This document shows positions 466-34,497 of a stretch of DNA of 64,000 bases, in pieces. This DNA is from Anaerofustis stercorihominis DSM 17244 (lineage in GTDB: Bacteria; Bacillota; Clostridia; Eubacteriales; Anaerofustaceae): the NCBI RefSeq assembly GCF_000154825.1, contig NZ_DS560019.1, positions 372,001 through 436,000 on the forward strand, written 5' to 3'. The position numbers were made by a program, and so were the translations under genes. Below the pieces are notes generated by a model. That model did no database searches, was not told the origin of the DNA, and saw only the letters and a list, made by a program, of their open reading frames with translations. The first letter of the stretch is position 1; every line of letters begins with the position of its first letter.

Positions 466-1947
466 TTGAATAACAAAATTAGTAAAACACTATGTGTTTT
501 TATAGTTATCAGTATAATATTTTGCATATATCCAACAACAGCTCTTGCAAAAGAACAAACACTTCTTGATATTTCAAAAGGATCTATAAATATAACAGAC
601 ACTCAAATAACTCAAGATAATATCGTAATTGAGGATAAGTTAAATCCCAACGGATATCAAATAACCGGAGAAAGCAACAGCAATTCTTTAATAATAGAAA
701 CGTCTAAAGATGTAAATATAACATTTAAGGATTTAAAAATATTACATGGTTCTGATAAGGTAGCAATAAATTCAGGGAAAACAATTATATCATTACAAGG
801 TGATAACGAAATAGGATATAGAGGAGACTCTCAAATAGCATCTATTTATGTTGCACCAAATGCTACGATAGAATTTTCAGAGAAAAGCACCGGAAATTTA
901 AATGTATACTGTGCAACAAACAGCGTGGGAAATGGGAATGCTGCCGCAGCTATCGGTGCTCATCATAAATATTTGGGAAGAAATCTTTTAGATGCGGGAA
1001 CGATAATCATAAACGGAGGACATATAACCGCAAGAGCAGGATACGGCTCTGCAGGAATAGGCGGAGGAAACGGCACAAAAGTAAAGAAAATAATAATAAA
1101 CGGAGGATATATTGATGCCCAAGGCGGTAAAAGGTCTCAGGGAATCGGTAGCGGTAAAGATTCATACGTGGAGCAAGACATTATTATAACAAATGGCATA
1201 TTCTCCGAAGGAAACACCGTAAAAGATAAAATAAAATTATCCGTTCCAACTGCGACACTTTCATATAATGATCTTTCATTAATAAACACTTCATCAAATT
1301 GGAAGTATTCATTGGATGACGGTAAAAGTTTTATAACAAGCATTACAGATAAAATAGAATTTAGTGAAGAACACCTAAATAAGTTAAAAAATTTGATGAT
1401 AGTCAATATCGGAGATAACAGAGTAACTGAAGACAGCGATACTCAAACAATTGCTATAATAAAAAACGCTACTCCGGATGCTCCGCAATTTATCTCTGCA
1501 AATGAAAGCGAAATTAAAGTAGAAAAAATTGACGGACAGGAATATGCCATATCGAAGTCGGGAGAAGATAATTACAGCAAATGGCAAGATAGTGGTATAT
1601 TCAAAGGTATATATAAAAATGGGGAAACCTACGACATTATAACCAGAACAAAGAGAAATGAATACGGACTTACTAGCGAAGCAAGCAGCATAACGACCGT
1701 AAAAATAATAACCGACACCGAGAACATTGATAATGATAGCAATAATAGTAATGATAGTAATAATAGCAATGTTACTACAAATAAAGAAACTATTAAAAAA
1801 AGAAATAAAAGTAATAATAACATACAACCTGAAAATCCCGAAACAAGAGATAATAACGACATGAAAAATTGGATTTTAATATTATTTTCATCTTTGTTTT
1901 TTATATTAATTATAATTACAAGAATTCAAAAAACAACAAAAGAATAA
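466..1947 (+). CDS. Secreted glycine-rich beta-helix-like surface protein with sorting-type C-terminus
   Basis: Function is not recognised. The 493-residue protein starts with TTG, eight bases after GAAGGAG. It has a signal peptide (basic start, hydrophobic stretch to about residue 24, TTALA cleavage-type motif). Residues about 170-245 hold repeats of the type INGG-I-AxxG-G-GIGGG/GIGSG, typical of right-handed beta-helix surface proteins of gut Firmicutes. A low-complexity Asn/Ser linker (about 420-445) precedes a C-terminal ENPETRDNN motif, a 20-residue hydrophobic segment and a basic tail: the layout of a sortase substrate, but with Arg where LPxTG-type motifs have Gly. It is probably exported and held at the surface. 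A sortase is not in the window. Confidence 0.75.
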   Translation: MNNKISKTLCVFIVISIIFCIYPTTALAKEQTLLDISKGSINITDTQITQDNIVIEDKLNPNGYQITGESNSNSLIIETSKDVNITFKDLKILHGSDKVAINSGKTIISLQGDNEIGYRGDSQIASIYVAPNATIEFSEKSTGNLNVYCATNSVGNGNAAAAIGAHHKYLGRNLLDAGTIIINGGHITARAGYGSAGIGGGNGTKVKKIIINGGYIDAQGGKRSQGIGSGKDSYVEQDIIITNGIFSEGNTVKDKIKLSVPTATLSYNDLSLINTSSNWKYSLDDGKSFITSITDKIEFSEEHLNKLKNLMIVNIGDNRVTEDSDTQTIAIIKNATPDAPQFISANESEIKVEKIDGQEYAISKSGEDNYSKWQDSGIFKGIYKNGETYDIITRTKRNEYGLTSEASSITTVKIITDTENIDNDSNNSNDSNNSNVTTNKETIKKRNKSNNNIQPENPETRDNNDMKNWILILFSSLFFILIIITRIQKTTKE

Positions 1948-4321: not shown

Positions 4322-4431
4322 AATATCTCCTTATATAAATAAAATTTATTGTTCAATAAAAATATCATTCCCATTAATTATACATCTTAATAATCCCATT
4401 TCAAAGTAAAAACCATAATAAATTAAAGAAT

Positions 4432-4467
4432 AAAAATAGACTCATATGAGAAATGAGCCTATTTTTT
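4432..4467. terminator. Bidirectional intrinsic terminator
   Basis: TAGACTCAT / ATGAGCCTA stem (one A-C mismatch) with a 7-base loop, flanked by AAAAA on the left and TTTTTT on the right. It ends the surface-protein locus transcribed on the minus strand. Confidence 0.75.
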
Positions 4468-4488
4468 AATCCTGAAATTTATATACTA

Positions 4489-5115
4489 TTATTTAGTATT
4501 ATTTTTATTAATAGTAAATGATACTATCGATATCATTATTACGGAAGCAGCAAGTAAGATTATATACATATATAAATTATTATCATCTCCCGTTTCAGGA
4601 GAATTTTTTACAGATGAACCCTTACTTATCTTATGATTTTCAAACTTCACATTAGAAATTTTATTATTAATCTCACCGGTACTATTAATAGATTTTACTT
4701 TATATCCATTATAATTGCTTTCTTTTACGGAATATTTCACACTCAAAGGAAGTCCTTTAGCAATTTTACTTTGTCCATGTTTCAGTTCAAAAGAAGAAAC
4801 ACCGTTTTTAAATTCCATATCACCGTAATTACCGTTTATTGATTTATCATTAAGCGTTACAATGAATTTAAATCTTTTCGAAGTGTCTATATCCTTTCCA
4901 ATGACGGTTTTTGATACACTTAAATCACCTTCGTCCCGTTCGTTATTTAATCGGTTTATCAACTTAATGGTAATTGTTTTTCCGTTTAACACAGCATCAC
5001 CGTAAACAGGTATTGATAAGTCTAAATCCTCTTCAACTATGTTATATTTTTTTAATACATTTCCTACATTAGGAAGATGAGTAAAAGAGCCTTTATATCC
5101 ATTTTCTTTTGTTAA
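4489..5115 (-). pseudogene. Downstream part of the split surface protein: DUF7601/Cna-type repeat and LPxTG-like anchor
   Basis: This stretch is in the same frame as the upstream gene (5116-6963), separated only by a TAA at 5116-5118. Translating through the stop continues a Cna-B-like domain (LTKENGYKGSFTHLP), then a DUF7601-type domain (VSKTVIGKDI..., NGNYGDMEFKNG, ending in VKESNYNGYKV), then the cell-wall sorting signal SPETGDDNN, a hydrophobic segment and an Asn/Lys tail. A GTG at 4992 could start a 167-residue product, but it lacks a signal peptide and begins mid-domain. Most likely this is the detached anchor region of one ancestral gene of about 825 codons. Confidence 0.8.
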
Positions 5116-6963
5116 TTAAATATGATCTACTTTAACACCGTCAATCGTTAAATATATTTTTATTATATCCGGTTTTAAATTATCGGGATAATCATCTGCA
5201 AAGCTTTTTTCTACTCTTAATGACAGTTCATCATTATCCCTTTGACCTATCTTAATTGCTCCATTTGAGCCGACACCGCCGCCTTTTGTTGCTTCGTTAT
5301 TTTTTATAATCAGCTTTTTCTCCTTGTTGGCAAGATCTTTTGCTCCTTGAGATGCTTTAGAGTGAAGATATATATTTTCTTTTACCGGCATATTTTTATT
5401 GGTTTCAGACATTTCTATCGGGTTTTCGGTTTCTTTAAACCTTGCATTCTCACTATCTTCATACCAAGTTGTTTTACCGCCCCCAAGCATTCTGCTTGAC
5501 AAATATGCATAATATTTTTTTTGTTCCTCTTCACTTTTATTTTCGCCCATAAAATCATCACCTGCTGTTTTTGCAGCATTATCAAATACCGCACCACCGT
5601 TTTTAACGGCGATTTCAACAGTTCCTGTAGGGCAGAACCATAAACCTCCTCCGAAATCCGCATTATTTTCCGTTATTACTACATCATTCATTTTTAAGAG
5701 ATATGGAACGGACCCGACATATATCCCCCCGCCTTGTCTTTCCGCTTTATTGTTTTGTATTACACCACCGTTTAAAACAACTTTATTTGAGGATACATAC
5801 ACGCCTCCTCCGCAGCCGTCATCACCTAAAATATAGTTCTTACTGATATTAGTCTCTATTGTTCCTCCGTTCATTGTAAAAGAGCCTGGACAATGAAACT
5901 GATTTATCCAAGCATTATGATCGATTCCCCCGTCCATAGCTCCATGGCTTACATATCCGTCATTTACACATACTCCGGCACCCATCCTTGAAGTATTATT
6001 ACTTATAGTTCCTTTATTTAAAGTAAAATTCCCGCTCACATTGACCATAACACCTCCCCCGTAACCTCCGGCAGGATTAGTTCCGCTGCCTATGGCTGTG
6101 ACGGATTTATTACCCTTTATAATTCCTCCATCCATTGTAAAGTGTGCTTCATTTTTATAAGACGGCTGTCCGGCTGTTCCAACAAGTACAGCTCCGAAAT
6201 TTGCTGCATTGTTTAGTATTTCTCCCCCCGTCATTTTAAAATAAGAATCTGCGGAAGAGCTTCCAAAAAATTCAGGTGTTACATATACAGCAGCCGTATT
6301 CATCGTATCATTTATATCCAAAATGTTATCATTTATGCTTCCGTTATTGAGTTCAAAACGACCGCCTTTATAAACGCCGACAATACCGCAATATTGAGTT
6401 GCGTTCCCGCTGATGTCGGTATTTGCAACAGTATTATTTTCAATACTGCCCCCGTTCATTATCATTTCTGCATCACTGCCGGATATATTTATGGTACTGC
6501 TCCAATAACCAGAACTTACAGACCTGTACAGCTTTCCTTTTTCCAATTTAAAAGTCCCTTTACAATCTACTAAACTACCCTTTTCGTGACTAAAATGAAC
6601 AGGTATATTATTACCGTCTATTGTAATGCCGTCTATTGTTAAACTGCCGCCCTTTTCAATGGAAATCAATGTTGGCTCTGAGCTTACAAAACCATTATCT
6701 CTTACAAGAGTACCGTCTCCGCTTAAAATTATATTTTTATCTTTTGGTATTATGATCGTTTCTGTTATAGGGATATCACCTTTTATTTTTAGCTCAACGT
6801 TCCCGTTTGAATTATTGATATTATCAATTAAAGAATTAAAATCCGTAATTTCATATATATTTTTATTTTCTCCCGCATATAAAGCATTCCCGACAAATAA
6901 AAATAATGAAAGAAAAGTAATTAATAATAGATTTATCATAATTTTTAGACGCATAATTTTCAT
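5116..6963 (-). CDS. Large secreted beta-helix surface protein, ended early by an in-frame TAA
   Basis: Function is not recognised beyond a secreted adhesin-like architecture. The start is the ATG at 6963, eight bases after AAAGGAG; a TTG at 6969 is too close to the SD. A signal peptide covers about residues 1-30 (MINLLLITFLSLFLFVGNALYA). Residues about 60-480 carry some ten irregular repeats of the form (M/L)(N/D)GG-I-NN (for example MDGGIIKGNKS, MNGGTIETNIS, LNGGVIQNNKA), the pattern of right-handed parallel beta-helix proteins. The last residues enter a Cna-B-like domain and stop at DGVKVDHI. The rest of that domain and the cell-wall anchor lie in frame downstream (4489-5115). Without readthrough the product would be secreted and not wall-anchored. 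A 520-base control region precedes it. Confidence 0.82.
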   Translation of the reverse strand: MKIMRLKIMINLLLITFLSLFLFVGNALYAGENKNIYEITDFNSLIDNINNSNGNVELKIKGDIPITETIIIPKDKNIILSGDGTLVRDNGFVSSEPTLISIEKGGSLTIDGITIDGNNIPVHFSHEKGSLVDCKGTFKLEKGKLYRSVSSGYWSSTINISGSDAEMIMNGGSIENNTVANTDISGNATQYCGIVGVYKGGRFELNNGSINDNILDINDTMNTAAVYVTPEFFGSSSADSYFKMTGGEILNNAANFGAVLVGTAGQPSYKNEAHFTMDGGIIKGNKSVTAIGSGTNPAGGYGGGVMVNVSGNFTLNKGTISNNTSRMGAGVCVNDGYVSHGAMDGGIDHNAWINQFHCPGSFTMNGGTIETNISKNYILGDDGCGGGVYVSSNKVVLNGGVIQNNKAERQGGGIYVGSVPYLLKMNDVVITENNADFGGGLWFCPTGTVEIAVKNGGAVFDNAAKTAGDDFMGENKSEEEQKKYYAYLSSRMLGGGKTTWYEDSENARFKETENPIEMSETNKNMPVKENIYLHSKASQGAKDLANKEKKLIIKNNEATKGGGVGSNGAIKIGQRDNDELSLRVEKSFADDYPDNLKPDIIKIYLTIDGVKVDHI

Positions 6964-7002
6964 AGTCAAATCTCCTTTTTTTATATATATATGAAATTAT
7001 TT

Positions 7003-7030
7003 AGTTATAAAAAGTGTACTTTTTGTAACT
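7003..7030. promoter_or_regulatory. Operator-like palindrome, site 1
   Basis: 28-bp imperfect palindrome (12 of 14 positions match between arms), left arm AGTTATAAAAAGTG. It contains TTATAAAAAGTGTA at 7005-7018. It lies 40-67 bases upstream of the start codon at 6963, so it may overlap the promoter. Confidence 0.55.
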
Positions 7031-7051
7031 AATAATTTTATCAATTAAAGT

Positions 7052-7095
7052 ATAAATATTAATACAAAACTCAAAAGATTTGTATTAATATTTAT
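7052..7095. repeat. Perfect 17-bp inverted repeat with 10-base loop
   Basis: ATAAATATTAATACAAA (7052-7068) and its exact reverse complement (7079-7095). A T-run (7095-7101) follows on the plus strand, but no plus-strand gene precedes it. On the minus strand it could form a long stem in the surface-protein leader. Confidence 0.6.
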
Positions 7096-7158
7096 TTTTT
7101 TACTTCATTTTATAAAAGTTTTAATTTGTTTTATCAATATTTTTTTAGATACAAAATC

Positions 7159-7172
7159 TACACTTTTTGTAA
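7159..7172. promoter_or_regulatory. Operator-like half site, site 2
   Basis: TACACTTTTTGTAA, the exact reverse complement of the TTACAAAAAGTGTA core of site 3. A degenerate partner TACAAAA lies at 7150-7156. Confidence 0.5.
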
Positions 7173-7270
7173 AGAATTAATACATTTACTCAAATACTAT
7201 TTGATTACTCGTTTTATCCAAATATAAATACAATTTGATACAAATATCAATTCAATGTGTATTGAAATCT

Positions 7271-7302
7271 AACGTTACAAAAAGTGTAATTTTTGTAACG
7301 TT
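7271..7302. promoter_or_regulatory. Operator-like palindrome, site 3
   Basis: 32-bp palindrome with exact 13-bp arms AACGTTACAAAAA / TTTTTGTAACGTT around GTGTAA. It contains the shared core TTACAAAAAGTGTA at 7275-7288. It is the strongest of the three sites. Confidence 0.55.
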
Positions 7303-7448
7303 TTGTCAATAATAATATTATATTGTTTTTTTCATTATAACAAATATAATTTACAATAAACAATACATATCTGTTAAGGTTAGTATATAGCTATCTTATA
7401 TTGCTATAAATAAAGGTAATTTAAAAGTTCAAAAATCAAACATCGTAA

Positions 7449-7481
7449 ACAAAAAAACACCCCAAATAATATTAGGGTGTT
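7449..7481 (-). terminator. Intrinsic terminator of uvrA
   Basis: Stem AACACCC (7456-7462) / GGGTGTT (7475-7481) with an A-run at 7451-7457 that becomes the U-tract on the minus strand. Confidence 0.85.
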
Positions 7482-11136: not shown

Positions 11137-11802
11137 ATGAATGATTACAATTTCAATATGAAAGAATTCCTTCCCTTTTGGGATGACCTAAAAAGTGAAT
11201 GTCAAAACACTATATTAAAAGAATTAAAACATAAGACATATAAAAAAGGCGAAACTGTTCACGACAACTCCGTAACATGTACGGGACTTATATTCATTTT
11301 AAGCGGTAAGCTCAGAGCATATATGATTTCGGAAAACGGGAGAGAGCTTAGTTTATATTATTTGATGGATAATGATATATGCTTAATGTCTGCTTCATGC
11401 GTGATGAAAGATATAACATTTGATATATTCATTGAAGCAATGGAGGATACAAAAGTAGCTATTTTACCTACACATATTTATAAAGATATAGCTAATAATT
11501 ATATCGAGATGTCAAAGTATGTTAATAGCATTATGTCTTCAAGGTTATCAGATGTAATGTGGATTTTAGAACAAGTATTATTTAAAAAATTCGATTCCAG
11601 ACTTGCGGAATTCCTTCTTTTCCACAGAGATGAAAATGATAAAATAAAAATGACTCATGAAGAAATAGCAAATCATTTGGGAAGTGCAAGAGAAGTGGTA
11701 AGCAGGATGCTCAAACACTTTGAAAGTAACGATATCATAAAACTTTTCAGAGGCGGTATCGAAATATTAAATGAAGATGAACTTATAAAACTCTCCGATT
11801 AA
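11137..11802 (+). CDS. Crp/Fnr-family transcriptional regulator
   Basis: 221 residues. The N-terminal two-thirds is the cyclic-nucleotide-binding-like beta roll (KKGETVHDNSV, FILSGKLRAYMISENGRELSLYYL). The C-terminal third holds the winged helix, with recognition helix region THEEIANHLGSAREVVSRMLKHFE. The cAMP phosphate-binding RxS motif is not evident and there is no N-terminal Fe-S cysteine cluster, so the effector is unknown. Cysteines near residues 49, 87 and 93 could sense redox, but this is speculation. SD AAGGCGG precedes the ATG. It is divergent from trxA and likely autoregulated through the palindrome at 11049-11063. The GC-rich repeat at 11822 acts as its terminator. Confidence 0.88.
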   Translation: MNDYNFNMKEFLPFWDDLKSECQNTILKELKHKTYKKGETVHDNSVTCTGLIFILSGKLRAYMISENGRELSLYYLMDNDICLMSASCVMKDITFDIFIEAMEDTKVAILPTHIYKDIANNYIEMSKYVNSIMSSRLSDVMWILEQVLFKKFDSRLAEFLLFHRDENDKIKMTHEEIANHLGSAREVVSRMLKHFESNDIIKLFRGGIEILNEDELIKLSD

Positions 11803-33073: not shown

Positions 33074-34497
33074 ATGAAAGAAGTAACGATAGATTATGAA
33101 GAAAACGAAAAACAAAAAATTTTTCACAAAAGCAGTGAGGAAGAAGTATTATACGGAGGAGCAAAAGGAGGAGGCAAAAGCTGTGCTTTAGTAATGGACG
33201 CACTTAAATATGCACTTATATATAAGAAAAGCACAATATACCTCTTCAGAAAAACCTATGATGATTTGGAGGCAAATCTTATAAGTGAATGGTTCAATAA
33301 AGTACCGAGTATAATATATAAATATAATGCGTCAAAAAAAATCGCAACATTAATCAATGAAAGTAAAATATTTTCAGATTCGTATCCAATTATAATGACG
33401 CCATAAGATATGACGGAAGAAGTATTGATTATATCGGAATAGATGAACTTACTCACTTTGAAGAGGAATGGGTACAGATATTACTGTCGTGTCTTAGAAG
33501 TCCCAAAGGATACCCGACATTTTTCAGAGCTACGGCAAATCCGGGCAATATCGGTCATGCTTGGGTAAAAGCAAGATATATAACATCTACTGACTATGGT
33601 AAAAAAATATATGAAGACAAAAAAAACGGGAATAAAATAAAATTTATACCTGCAAGAGTATATGATAATAAAATCTTAACGGAAAATGACCCTAAATATA
33701 TAAGAAGACTTGAAAATCTGCCCGAAGCTAAGAGAAAAGCATATTTAGAAGGTGACTGGGATATATATGAAGGTAGAGCCTTTCCAGAATTTGACGAAGG
33801 AATACATATCGTAGATGACTTTGAAATACCAAAACACTGGGTAAGATGGATGGCTGTGGATAACGGATATGCAGACCCTTTTTACTTTGCATGGTTTACG
33901 ATAAGCGAAGACGGGATAGTTTATCTTTACAGAGAATATACGAGAAAACACACAGATATAAGGATCCCGTATTCAGAACAAGGTAAAAATGCAATGGAAA
34001 TGATGACAAAACCTTATGTCGATGAAAACGGTGAAATAAAAGAAGAAACAGAGGATATTGAAGTATGTGTCGCAGGGCTCGACGCTTTCAATAAACATCA
34101 TAGGGATATAAGCGGGAAAACCCTCATTGATTATTATAGACAAGGAGGCTTTACCGTTCCGTTTACCAAAGCTATAACATCTAGGGAACTCAGGAAAAGC
34201 ACTTTTCATGAATATTTAAAACCAATAAATGATAAAAATACAGATACCGATTATGCAAAGTTTCAAGTTTTTAAGTCGTGTAAAACGTTCATTGAAACAT
34301 TTAAAGATTTAATGGAAGAAGAGGGAAACCCGGAGGTCGTGGCTGACGATAAAAATGATCATGCATACGATGCGGTTGGATACGGATTAATATATTATCA
34401 CTCTGACAAGAGTAAAAAGACTGTTAAAGAAAAAAGGATTGAAACATATAAAAATGAGGCAATAAAAAGAAAGAAAAAAACTAAAAAATATTTATAA
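33074..34497 (+). pseudogene. Phage terminase large subunit, broken by one frameshift
   Basis: The N-terminal frame (33074-33406) has Walker A GGAKGGGKS near residue 35 and ends in SDSYPIIMTP before a stop. In the -1 frame, open from 33376 to 34497, the protein resumes as RFVSNYNDAIRYDGRSIDYIGIDEL (Walker B), SCLRSPKGYP, ATANPGNIGHAWVK, then the RNase H-like nuclease (MAVDNGYADPF, VAGLDAF, NDHAYDAVGYG). The break is at about 33365-33378 and fits loss of one base. Together about 474 codons, a full-length terminase with all motifs kept. No portal, capsid or integrase gene is near. An ATG at 33850 could express the nuclease part alone. Confidence 0.85.

What the first reader, a model, noticed from the sequence alone, without database searches (positions are those of the whole stretch)
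4489..6963. A wall-anchored surface protein split by a single in-frame TAA inside a Cna-B-like domain
The minus-strand frame is continuous from 6963 to 4489 except for TAA at 5116-5118. Both sides of the stop belong to one domain (DGVKVDHI, stop, LTKENGYKGSFTHLP), and the anchor SPETGDDNN lies after it. The stop turns a wall-anchored protein into a secreted one. It may be a recent nonsense mutation, a sequencing error, a phase-type variant selected in the host, or partial readthrough.
Basis: seen in the sequence. Interest (0 to 1): 0.55.

Follow-up and report, generated by a model that had tools for sequence, protein, structure and literature searches.

The report
Truncated surface gene behind invertible promoter
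A gut bacterium's surface-protein gene is cut short by one stop codon, and just in front of it lie three short recombination-site-like sequences that also occur in pairs before other surface genes of the same genome, which suggests a genome-wide DNA-flipping switch for the cell surface.

Summary
One in-frame TAA (5118-5116) cuts a frame of 824 codons; the wall-anchor half after it stays open and in register. Sixteen distinct distant relatives that align across the spot have no stop there. Both congeners held lack the gene altogether. The plain reading is a fresh nonsense allele of an accessory surface protein, comparable to truncated InlA of Listeria. Nothing supports readthrough. A read error cannot be excluded, but 52 of 57 conserved ORFs compared are uninterrupted and none of the five exceptions is a nonsense change.

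The larger result lies upstream. Three 26-bp palindromic sites (7004-7029, 7148-7173, 7274-7299) alternate in orientation. The same site recurs in pairs 126-148 bp apart before eight other surface genes and one 123-aa ORF of this genome. In 13 of 13 pairs examined the two central bases are reverse complements, as serine-invertase crossover sites require. In four other places a serine recombinase gene lies beside such a pair: this genome's integrated element, L084, L207, and L023, where the next gene is a homologue of this one. I read this as promoter inversion (phase variation) of surface proteins, comparable to the Mpi regulon of Bacteroides. Inversion itself was not observed.

The parts
5119..6963 (-). 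truncated surface-protein ORF, 615 codons: signal peptide, predicted parallel beta-helix, start of a Cna-B-like domain
   Evidence: AlphaFold2 model mean pLDDT 81.7, strand-rich; Foldseek best hits are beta-helix proteins but none at E<=0.001
5116..5118 (-). in-frame TAA
4489..5115 (-). frame after the stop, 208 codons plus its own stop, no signal peptide of its own
   Evidence: first in-frame GTG only at 4992
4630..4929 (-). DUF7601 (PF24547) domain, lost from the truncated product
   Evidence: genome place C5:376630-376929
4585..4602 (-). SPETGD sorting-like signal, lost from the truncated product
7274..7299 (+). site A, GTTACAAAAAGT GT AATTTTTGTAAC, 26-bp palindromic invertase-like site
7148..7173 (-). 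site C, opposite orientation to A and B (core AC on the + strand)
7004..7029 (+). site B, gene-proximal, about 40 bp from the start codon
7174..7273 (.). putative invertible segment between C and A; 87 of its bases match the segment before the 1390-aa surface gene at about 90%, same orientation
7221..7250 (-). promoter-like TTGATA-18-TATATT facing the gene, 10 of 12
   Evidence: consensus match only
7030..7147 (.). putative second invertible segment between B and C, holds an AT-rich inverted repeat 7047-7100
4432..4466 (-). terminator-like hairpin after the gene
4427..7480 (.). stretch present here and absent between cinA and uvrA in both congeners (boundaries by alignment to G002)

Best explanation
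The gene is an accessory, sortase-anchored beta-helix surface protein. It carries one recent nonsense mutation, so it encodes a 615-aa product without DUF7601 and wall anchor, probably released if it is made at all. Its promoter region looks like a serine-invertase phase switch. Three 26-bp sites alternate in orientation; recombination of A with C, or of C with B, would flip about 100-120 bp carrying a promoter (ON/OFF), and A with B would delete. The same kind of paired site precedes eight other surface genes of this genome, and probably controls them through one or more small serine recombinases acting in trans (candidates: C1:724-1332, and one on an integrated element, C5:36494-37141). A gene that is often OFF is weakly guarded by selection, so a stop codon can persist. 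SHOWN: the stop, site sequences, pairing, core rule, positions before genes, recombinase genes beside pairs at four loci. INFERRED: inversion, promoter activity, trans action, secretion, relaxed selection.
For: Stop unique: 16 of 16 distinct relatives aligned across the spot are stop-free. Of 15 such frames followed, 14 close at their own stop and 1 runs off its contig. Sites: 17 distinct places in the genome at up to 3 mismatches, reversed-pattern control 0. With partners, 11 pairs in this genome, spacing 126-148. Cores reverse-complementary in 13 of 13 pairs, four different core classes GT/AC, AT, TT/AA, AG/CT. In a loose scan of 42 own stretches (overlaps counted twice), pairs with matching inner arms have complementary cores in 12 of 14, pairs without matching inner arms in 2 of 34. 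De novo pair search: only such sites found in 822 kb (overlaps counted twice), 0 in shuffles. Recombinase beside a pair: C5 element, L084, L023, whose next gene is a homologue of ours, and L207, found by recombinase similarity alone. PF00239 confirmed in the three recombinases scanned.
Against: No inverted state was seen in any sequence. The two homologous segments (this gene and the 1390-aa gene) lie in the same orientation. The chromosomal pairs have no recombinase beside them. The C1 recombinase has no site pair beside it. Outside the core the half-sites show no consistent orientation; pair C4:160754/160889 is more alike in direct than in inverted order. Promoter-like matches occur in both directions in most segments. 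Five of 13 anchored frames seen in sampled stretches have no pair, among them the neighbour at 466-1947. One pair precedes a 123-aa ORF without signal peptide, and one site (C1:200044) has no partner. Of nine loci with recombinase relatives from viral contigs, eight were scanned; a pair was found in one, though at least two of the others have short flanks. The stricter scan did not pick up the L023 pair, which has 3 inner-arm mismatches.
Confidence: 0.72

Rival explanations
1. The 26-bp sites are paired operators of a transcription regulator of surface genes (looping repressor or activator), not recombination sites.
For: Palindromic, close to start codons, spacing 126-148 bp, shared by co-functional genes; half-sites have no consistent orientation outside the core; an FNR-like palindrome in two segments and a Crp/Fnr-like ORF at 11137-11802 show that regulators of such genes may exist.
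Against: An operator needs no rule for its two central bases, yet they are reverse complements in 13 of 13 pairs with four core classes. Serine recombinase genes adjoin such pairs at four loci.
Confidence: 0.17
2. The TAA is a sequencing or assembly error and the species has an intact wall-anchored protein.
For: Single change; the frame downstream is perfectly preserved; two frameshifts exist elsewhere: an A-run in the surface gene of L171 and the terminase at about 33373. The assembly may therefore hold some errors.
Against: No nonsense difference in 16,840 residues of uninterrupted conserved ORFs; the spot is not a homopolymer.
Confidence: 0.15
3. Programmed or partial readthrough of the TAA makes a minor wall-anchored form.
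For: The downstream frame is intact.
Against: UAA followed by U is a strong terminator context (recalled); no RNA structure beyond chance (z 0.51); 16 of 16 relatives have no stop there.
Confidence: 0.03
4. The sites are res-like deletion sites left by mobile elements that inserted the surface genes, not a regulatory switch.
For: Both surface genes in this window are absent from the congeners; the recombinases are near Tn3/Sin resolvases by sequence; A and B are in direct orientation.
Against: Adjacent sites are inverted by the core rule and sit in 5' regions only, not on both sides of the genes.
Confidence: 0.08

Closest known systems
Mpi (serine recombinase) promoter-inversion regulon of Bacteroides fragilis
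   Same: One genome, many short invertible promoter elements before surface loci, serine recombinase, trans action; [quoted passage not shown]
   Different: Here the targets are single sortase-anchored proteins of a Gram-positive anaerobe; recombinase not identified for the chromosomal sites; inversion not shown; core dinucleotide differs between loci
Hin/hix flagellar switch of Salmonella
   Same: 26-bp sites, serine recombinase, promoter inside the invertible DNA (PMC3798978, passages)
   Different: About 1 kb segment and a Fis enhancer (same passages); here elements of 126-148 bp and no enhancer identified
Invertons found by PhaseFinder-type surveys of gut bacteria (PMC11892184, passages; PMC5903667, passages)
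   Same: Short invertible DNA before surface genes; Clostridia included
   Different: The passages seen in PMC11892184 speak of tyrosine-type invertases; 'serine' and 'Anaerofustis' occur 0 times in its main text (supplements not readable here)
Premature-stop alleles of inlA in Listeria monocytogenes (PMC6558679, passages)
   Same: A nonsense codon before the anchor gives a secreted, truncated surface protein
   Different: Many independent alleles and an invasion phenotype are known there; here one genome, no phenotype, different protein family

Membership tests
Serine-invertase promoter switch (Hin/Mpi kind) | Two short recombination sites around a small intergenic segment upstream of a gene | tested here: met
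   11 pairs in this genome, proximal site 29-131 nt from a start codon in the sequences printed
Serine-invertase promoter switch (Hin/Mpi kind) | Sites are imperfect palindromes with a 2-bp core, cores in inverted orientation | tested here: met
   13 of 13 pairs; 2 of 34 control pairs
Serine-invertase promoter switch (Hin/Mpi kind) | Cognate serine recombinase gene | tested here: inconclusive
   PF00239 genes at C1:724-1332 and C5:36494-37141; the second adjoins its own pair; none adjoins the window's sites; only about 35% of the genome was read
Serine-invertase promoter switch (Hin/Mpi kind) | Promoter within the segment | tested here: inconclusive
   Consensus matches in both directions
Serine-invertase promoter switch (Hin/Mpi kind) | Both orientations exist in a population | not testable with these tools
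   No reads and no second strain of the species held
Sortase-anchored (LPXTG-like) surface protein | Signal peptide, C-terminal PxTx motif, hydrophobic stretch, basic tail, sortase in the genome | tested here: met
   Met for the full frame only: SPETGD tail, two class B sortase-like genes; the truncated product has no anchor
DUF7601 / Cna_B repeat surface proteins | Pfam match over the curated cut-off | tested here: met
   DUF7601 72.5 bits, cut-off 27; Cna_B 19.1, below its 22.3

The most novel reading that the evidence does not exclude
One small serine recombinase, spread as a module with surface genes on mobile elements, drives a regulon of at least nine independently flipping surface-protein promoters in this gut Eubacteriales species. 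Crossover dinucleotides that differ between loci (GT, AT, AA/TT) would limit crosstalk, and a three-site element at this gene would allow more than two states. The stop codon would be a second, permanent layer of silencing on a gene already switched off most of the time.
Probability: 0.45. Interest if true: 0.66.

Novelty: new member of a known kind. Interest (0 to 1): 0.5.

Why it matters
If true, a human-gut commensal outside the Bacteroidota flips a whole set of sortase-anchored proteins by a Mpi-like scheme. Strain-to-strain differences in its surface, and the tolerance of broken surface genes, would then follow from DNA inversion rather than from gene content alone. The truncated gene by itself is ordinary gene decay. 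The site list (11 pairs) makes the question directly testable with existing short-read data.

Tried and rejected
Readthrough signals: RNA fold around the stop, nothing. A second copy as donor or silent cassette: only one match in the genome. Slipped-strand or invertible DNA at the stop itself: none of the repeats found spans 5116-5118. Strain-level comparison of the codon: no close relative; both congeners lack the gene; viral contigs nothing. Inverted state of the element segment in other records: plasmids no match; the L207 segment is unrelated in sequence. The idea that the neighbour's NPETRD is a decayed anchor was dropped: the species uses P-x-T-[SGKR]-D-like motifs in most anchored frames seen. 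One de novo pair scan overflowed because of N runs and was redone. Whether the gene is ON or OFF in this assembly could not be decided. A site list of 16 was used and of 15 (C1:200044 dropped as unpaired). Rows dropped from the relatives count: 4 own-genome copies and 6 duplicate records of the same contigs; L031 is counted although its alignment there is poor. The scan of loci was meant to include L018-L096 but a naming slip left them out, so it covers 42 own stretches only. L213 was not put through the scan.

Full report
WHAT WAS CHECKED. The minus-strand frame 6963-4492 was translated with TAA read as X: 824 codons with a single stop at residue 616, 5118-5116. The start ATG follows a good ribosome-binding sequence. 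The 615-aa product has a signal-peptide-like start. An AlphaFold2 model with 9 aligned sequences has mean pLDDT 81.7 and is nearly all strand. Foldseek's best PDB hits are mostly beta-helix lyases and tailspikes, none at E<=0.001, so the beta-helix reading is likely but not proven. The part after the stop holds DUF7601 and SPETGD with a membrane tail.

THE STOP AGAINST RELATIVES. The protein has one match in its own genome. In 67 genomes of the order, 15 have some match to the full frame, and only the window's match has a stop inside. The genome-contig scan gave 79 loci. Of all loci then in hand, 16 distinct non-own ones align across residue 616, and 16 of 16 read a sense residue there without a stop in the aligned piece. 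Fifteen of them were followed: 14 frames close with their own stop well downstream, most with a sortase-like tail, and one runs off its contig. The two congeners held (about 88% and 80% nucleotide identity around the locus) have cinA next to uvrA with about 126 and 100 bp between, so the gene is absent. They likewise lack the other surface gene, 466-1947, between argF and recA (gene names by recall from the translations). No strain-level comparison of the codon was therefore possible.

QUALITY OF THE ASSEMBLY. Of 57 congener ORFs of 150 aa or more with a counterpart in the window, 52 are covered by one uninterrupted piece. Three are cut by the window's ends, one merely overruns its natural stop, and one (a phage terminase-like gene, about 33373) is frameshifted in the window. 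No nonsense change was seen. A base-substitution error at 5116-5118 is thus possible but not favoured. The RNA around the stop is no more structured than shuffles.

THE UPSTREAM SITES. A repeat search upstream of the gene gave three related palindromes. They are 26 bp, 12+2+12, half-site consensus GTTACAAAAAGT, at 7004-7029, 7148-7173 and 7274-7299; the middle one is in opposite orientation. Two full matches at up to 3 mismatches are found in the window against none in 100 shuffles. In the whole genome the pattern has 17 distinct places and its reversed control none. Reading 14-19 kb around them shows pairs 135-146 bp apart directly before genes for 566-, 1390-, 1750-, 822-, 816- and 750-aa anchored proteins, before a repeat-rich secreted-looking protein (L171), and before one 123-aa ORF without signal peptide. 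One place, C1:200044, has no partner.

WHY RECOMBINATION SITES. Serine recombinases cut at a 2-bp core, and recombining sites must share it; for inversion the cores must be inverted (established knowledge, recalled; that hix sites are 26 bp is in PMC3798978, passages). In 13 of 13 pairs (11 here, plus L084 and L023) the cores are reverse complements, in classes GT/AC, AT/AT, TT/AA and AG/CT. The partners in L167 and L170 were picked by half-site score alone, without regard to the core. In a loose scan of 42 own stretches, 12 of 14 pairs with matching inner arms obey the rule and 2 of 34 others do (overlapping stretches counted twice). Outside the core, half-sites have no consistent direction, and one pair (L169) looks direct; this is a point for the operator reading.

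RECOMBINASES. L084 (a Bacillota MAG) has a small recombinase gene immediately before such a pair, with a surface gene on its other side. Its protein finds a relative in an integrated element of this genome, C5:36494-37141 (E 8.3e-66). That gene lies between a relaxase-like gene and a pair (C5:36309/36457), followed by a 2030-aa anchored protein and a class B sortase-like gene. A further relative is at C1:724-1332, without a pair nearby. L023, which carries a homologue of the window's protein, has recombinase, pair and homologue in that order. L019 also has a recombinase, but only a weak pair 2 kb upstream of its surface gene. Searching viral contigs with the element's recombinase gave four loci; in one (L207) a pair with inverted cores lies 0.3-0.5 kb behind the gene, and shuffles give none. 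With the C1 recombinase five loci were found; four were scanned and none showed a pair. Three of the recombinases were scanned and match PF00239; the nearest solved structures to the C1 protein are Sin, gamma-delta/Tn3 resolvases and DNA invertases.

WHAT IS NOT SHOWN. No sequence shows the flipped state. The segment A-C and that of the 1390-aa gene are about 90% identical over 87 bp in the same orientation. Promoter-like matches occur in both directions; the best facing the window's gene in the A-C segment is TTGATA-18-TATATT at 7250-7221. Which enzyme acts on the chromosomal sites is unknown. Five of 13 anchored frames seen lack a pair, and the sample is biased because eight stretches were chosen around sites.

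COMPARISON WITH WHAT IS KNOWN. Trans-acting, multi-locus promoter inversion by a serine recombinase is known from Mpi of Bacteroides fragilis (PMC4747536 and PMC5903667, passages). Truncation before the anchor giving a secreted protein is known from inlA (PMC6558679, passages). A search for 'Anaerofustis' with 'invertible' gave 0 papers. The defined-community inverton paper PMC11892184 has 0 'Anaerofustis' and 0 'serine' in its main text; its supplements could not be read, and the 2019 Science survey is not held. That the genome is Anaerofustis stercorihominis (2.28 Mb in 5 contigs), and that this species belongs to that community, is recalled and comes from no call. I therefore call it a new member of a known kind, not a new kind.

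Noticed in passing
window 466-1947 (+): A second accessory surface protein with anchor NPETRD, absent from both congeners between argF and recA; no invertase-like pair before it.
   Followed up: partly
L171 about 6610-6635 (C5:356.6 kb): The repeat-rich surface gene behind pair C5:357165/357300 is frameshifted at a run of seven A; a paralogous stretch later in the same gene has six. Slipped-strand switch, decay or read error.
   Followed up: partly
window 33074-34497: Phage terminase-like gene in two frames, broken at about 33373 relative to the congener's 474-aa ORF.
   Followed up: partly
G000 anchored frames: Sorting motifs run P-x-T-[S/G/K/R]-D (SPDTSD, TPDTSD, NPETKD, TPNTRD, SPETGD) in most of 13 frames, with two class B sortase-like genes; S, K or R in place of the usual G is uncommon as far as I recall.
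   Followed up: no
window 7235-7250 and L164 segment 14735-14845: Both homologous promoter segments hold the palindrome TTGATATTTGTATCAA; a Crp/Fnr-like regulator ORF lies at window 11137-11802.
   Followed up: no
L185 9296-18875 (C5:29-39 kb): Integrated-element cargo: relaxase-like gene, serine recombinase, site pair, 2030-aa anchored protein and its own class B sortase-like gene in a row.
   Followed up: partly
L088 3263/3438: Chitinispirillia MAG with a pair of near-perfect palindromes GGGGAAAAAAGT AC/GT, inner arms identical, cores inverted, 175 bp apart.
   Followed up: no
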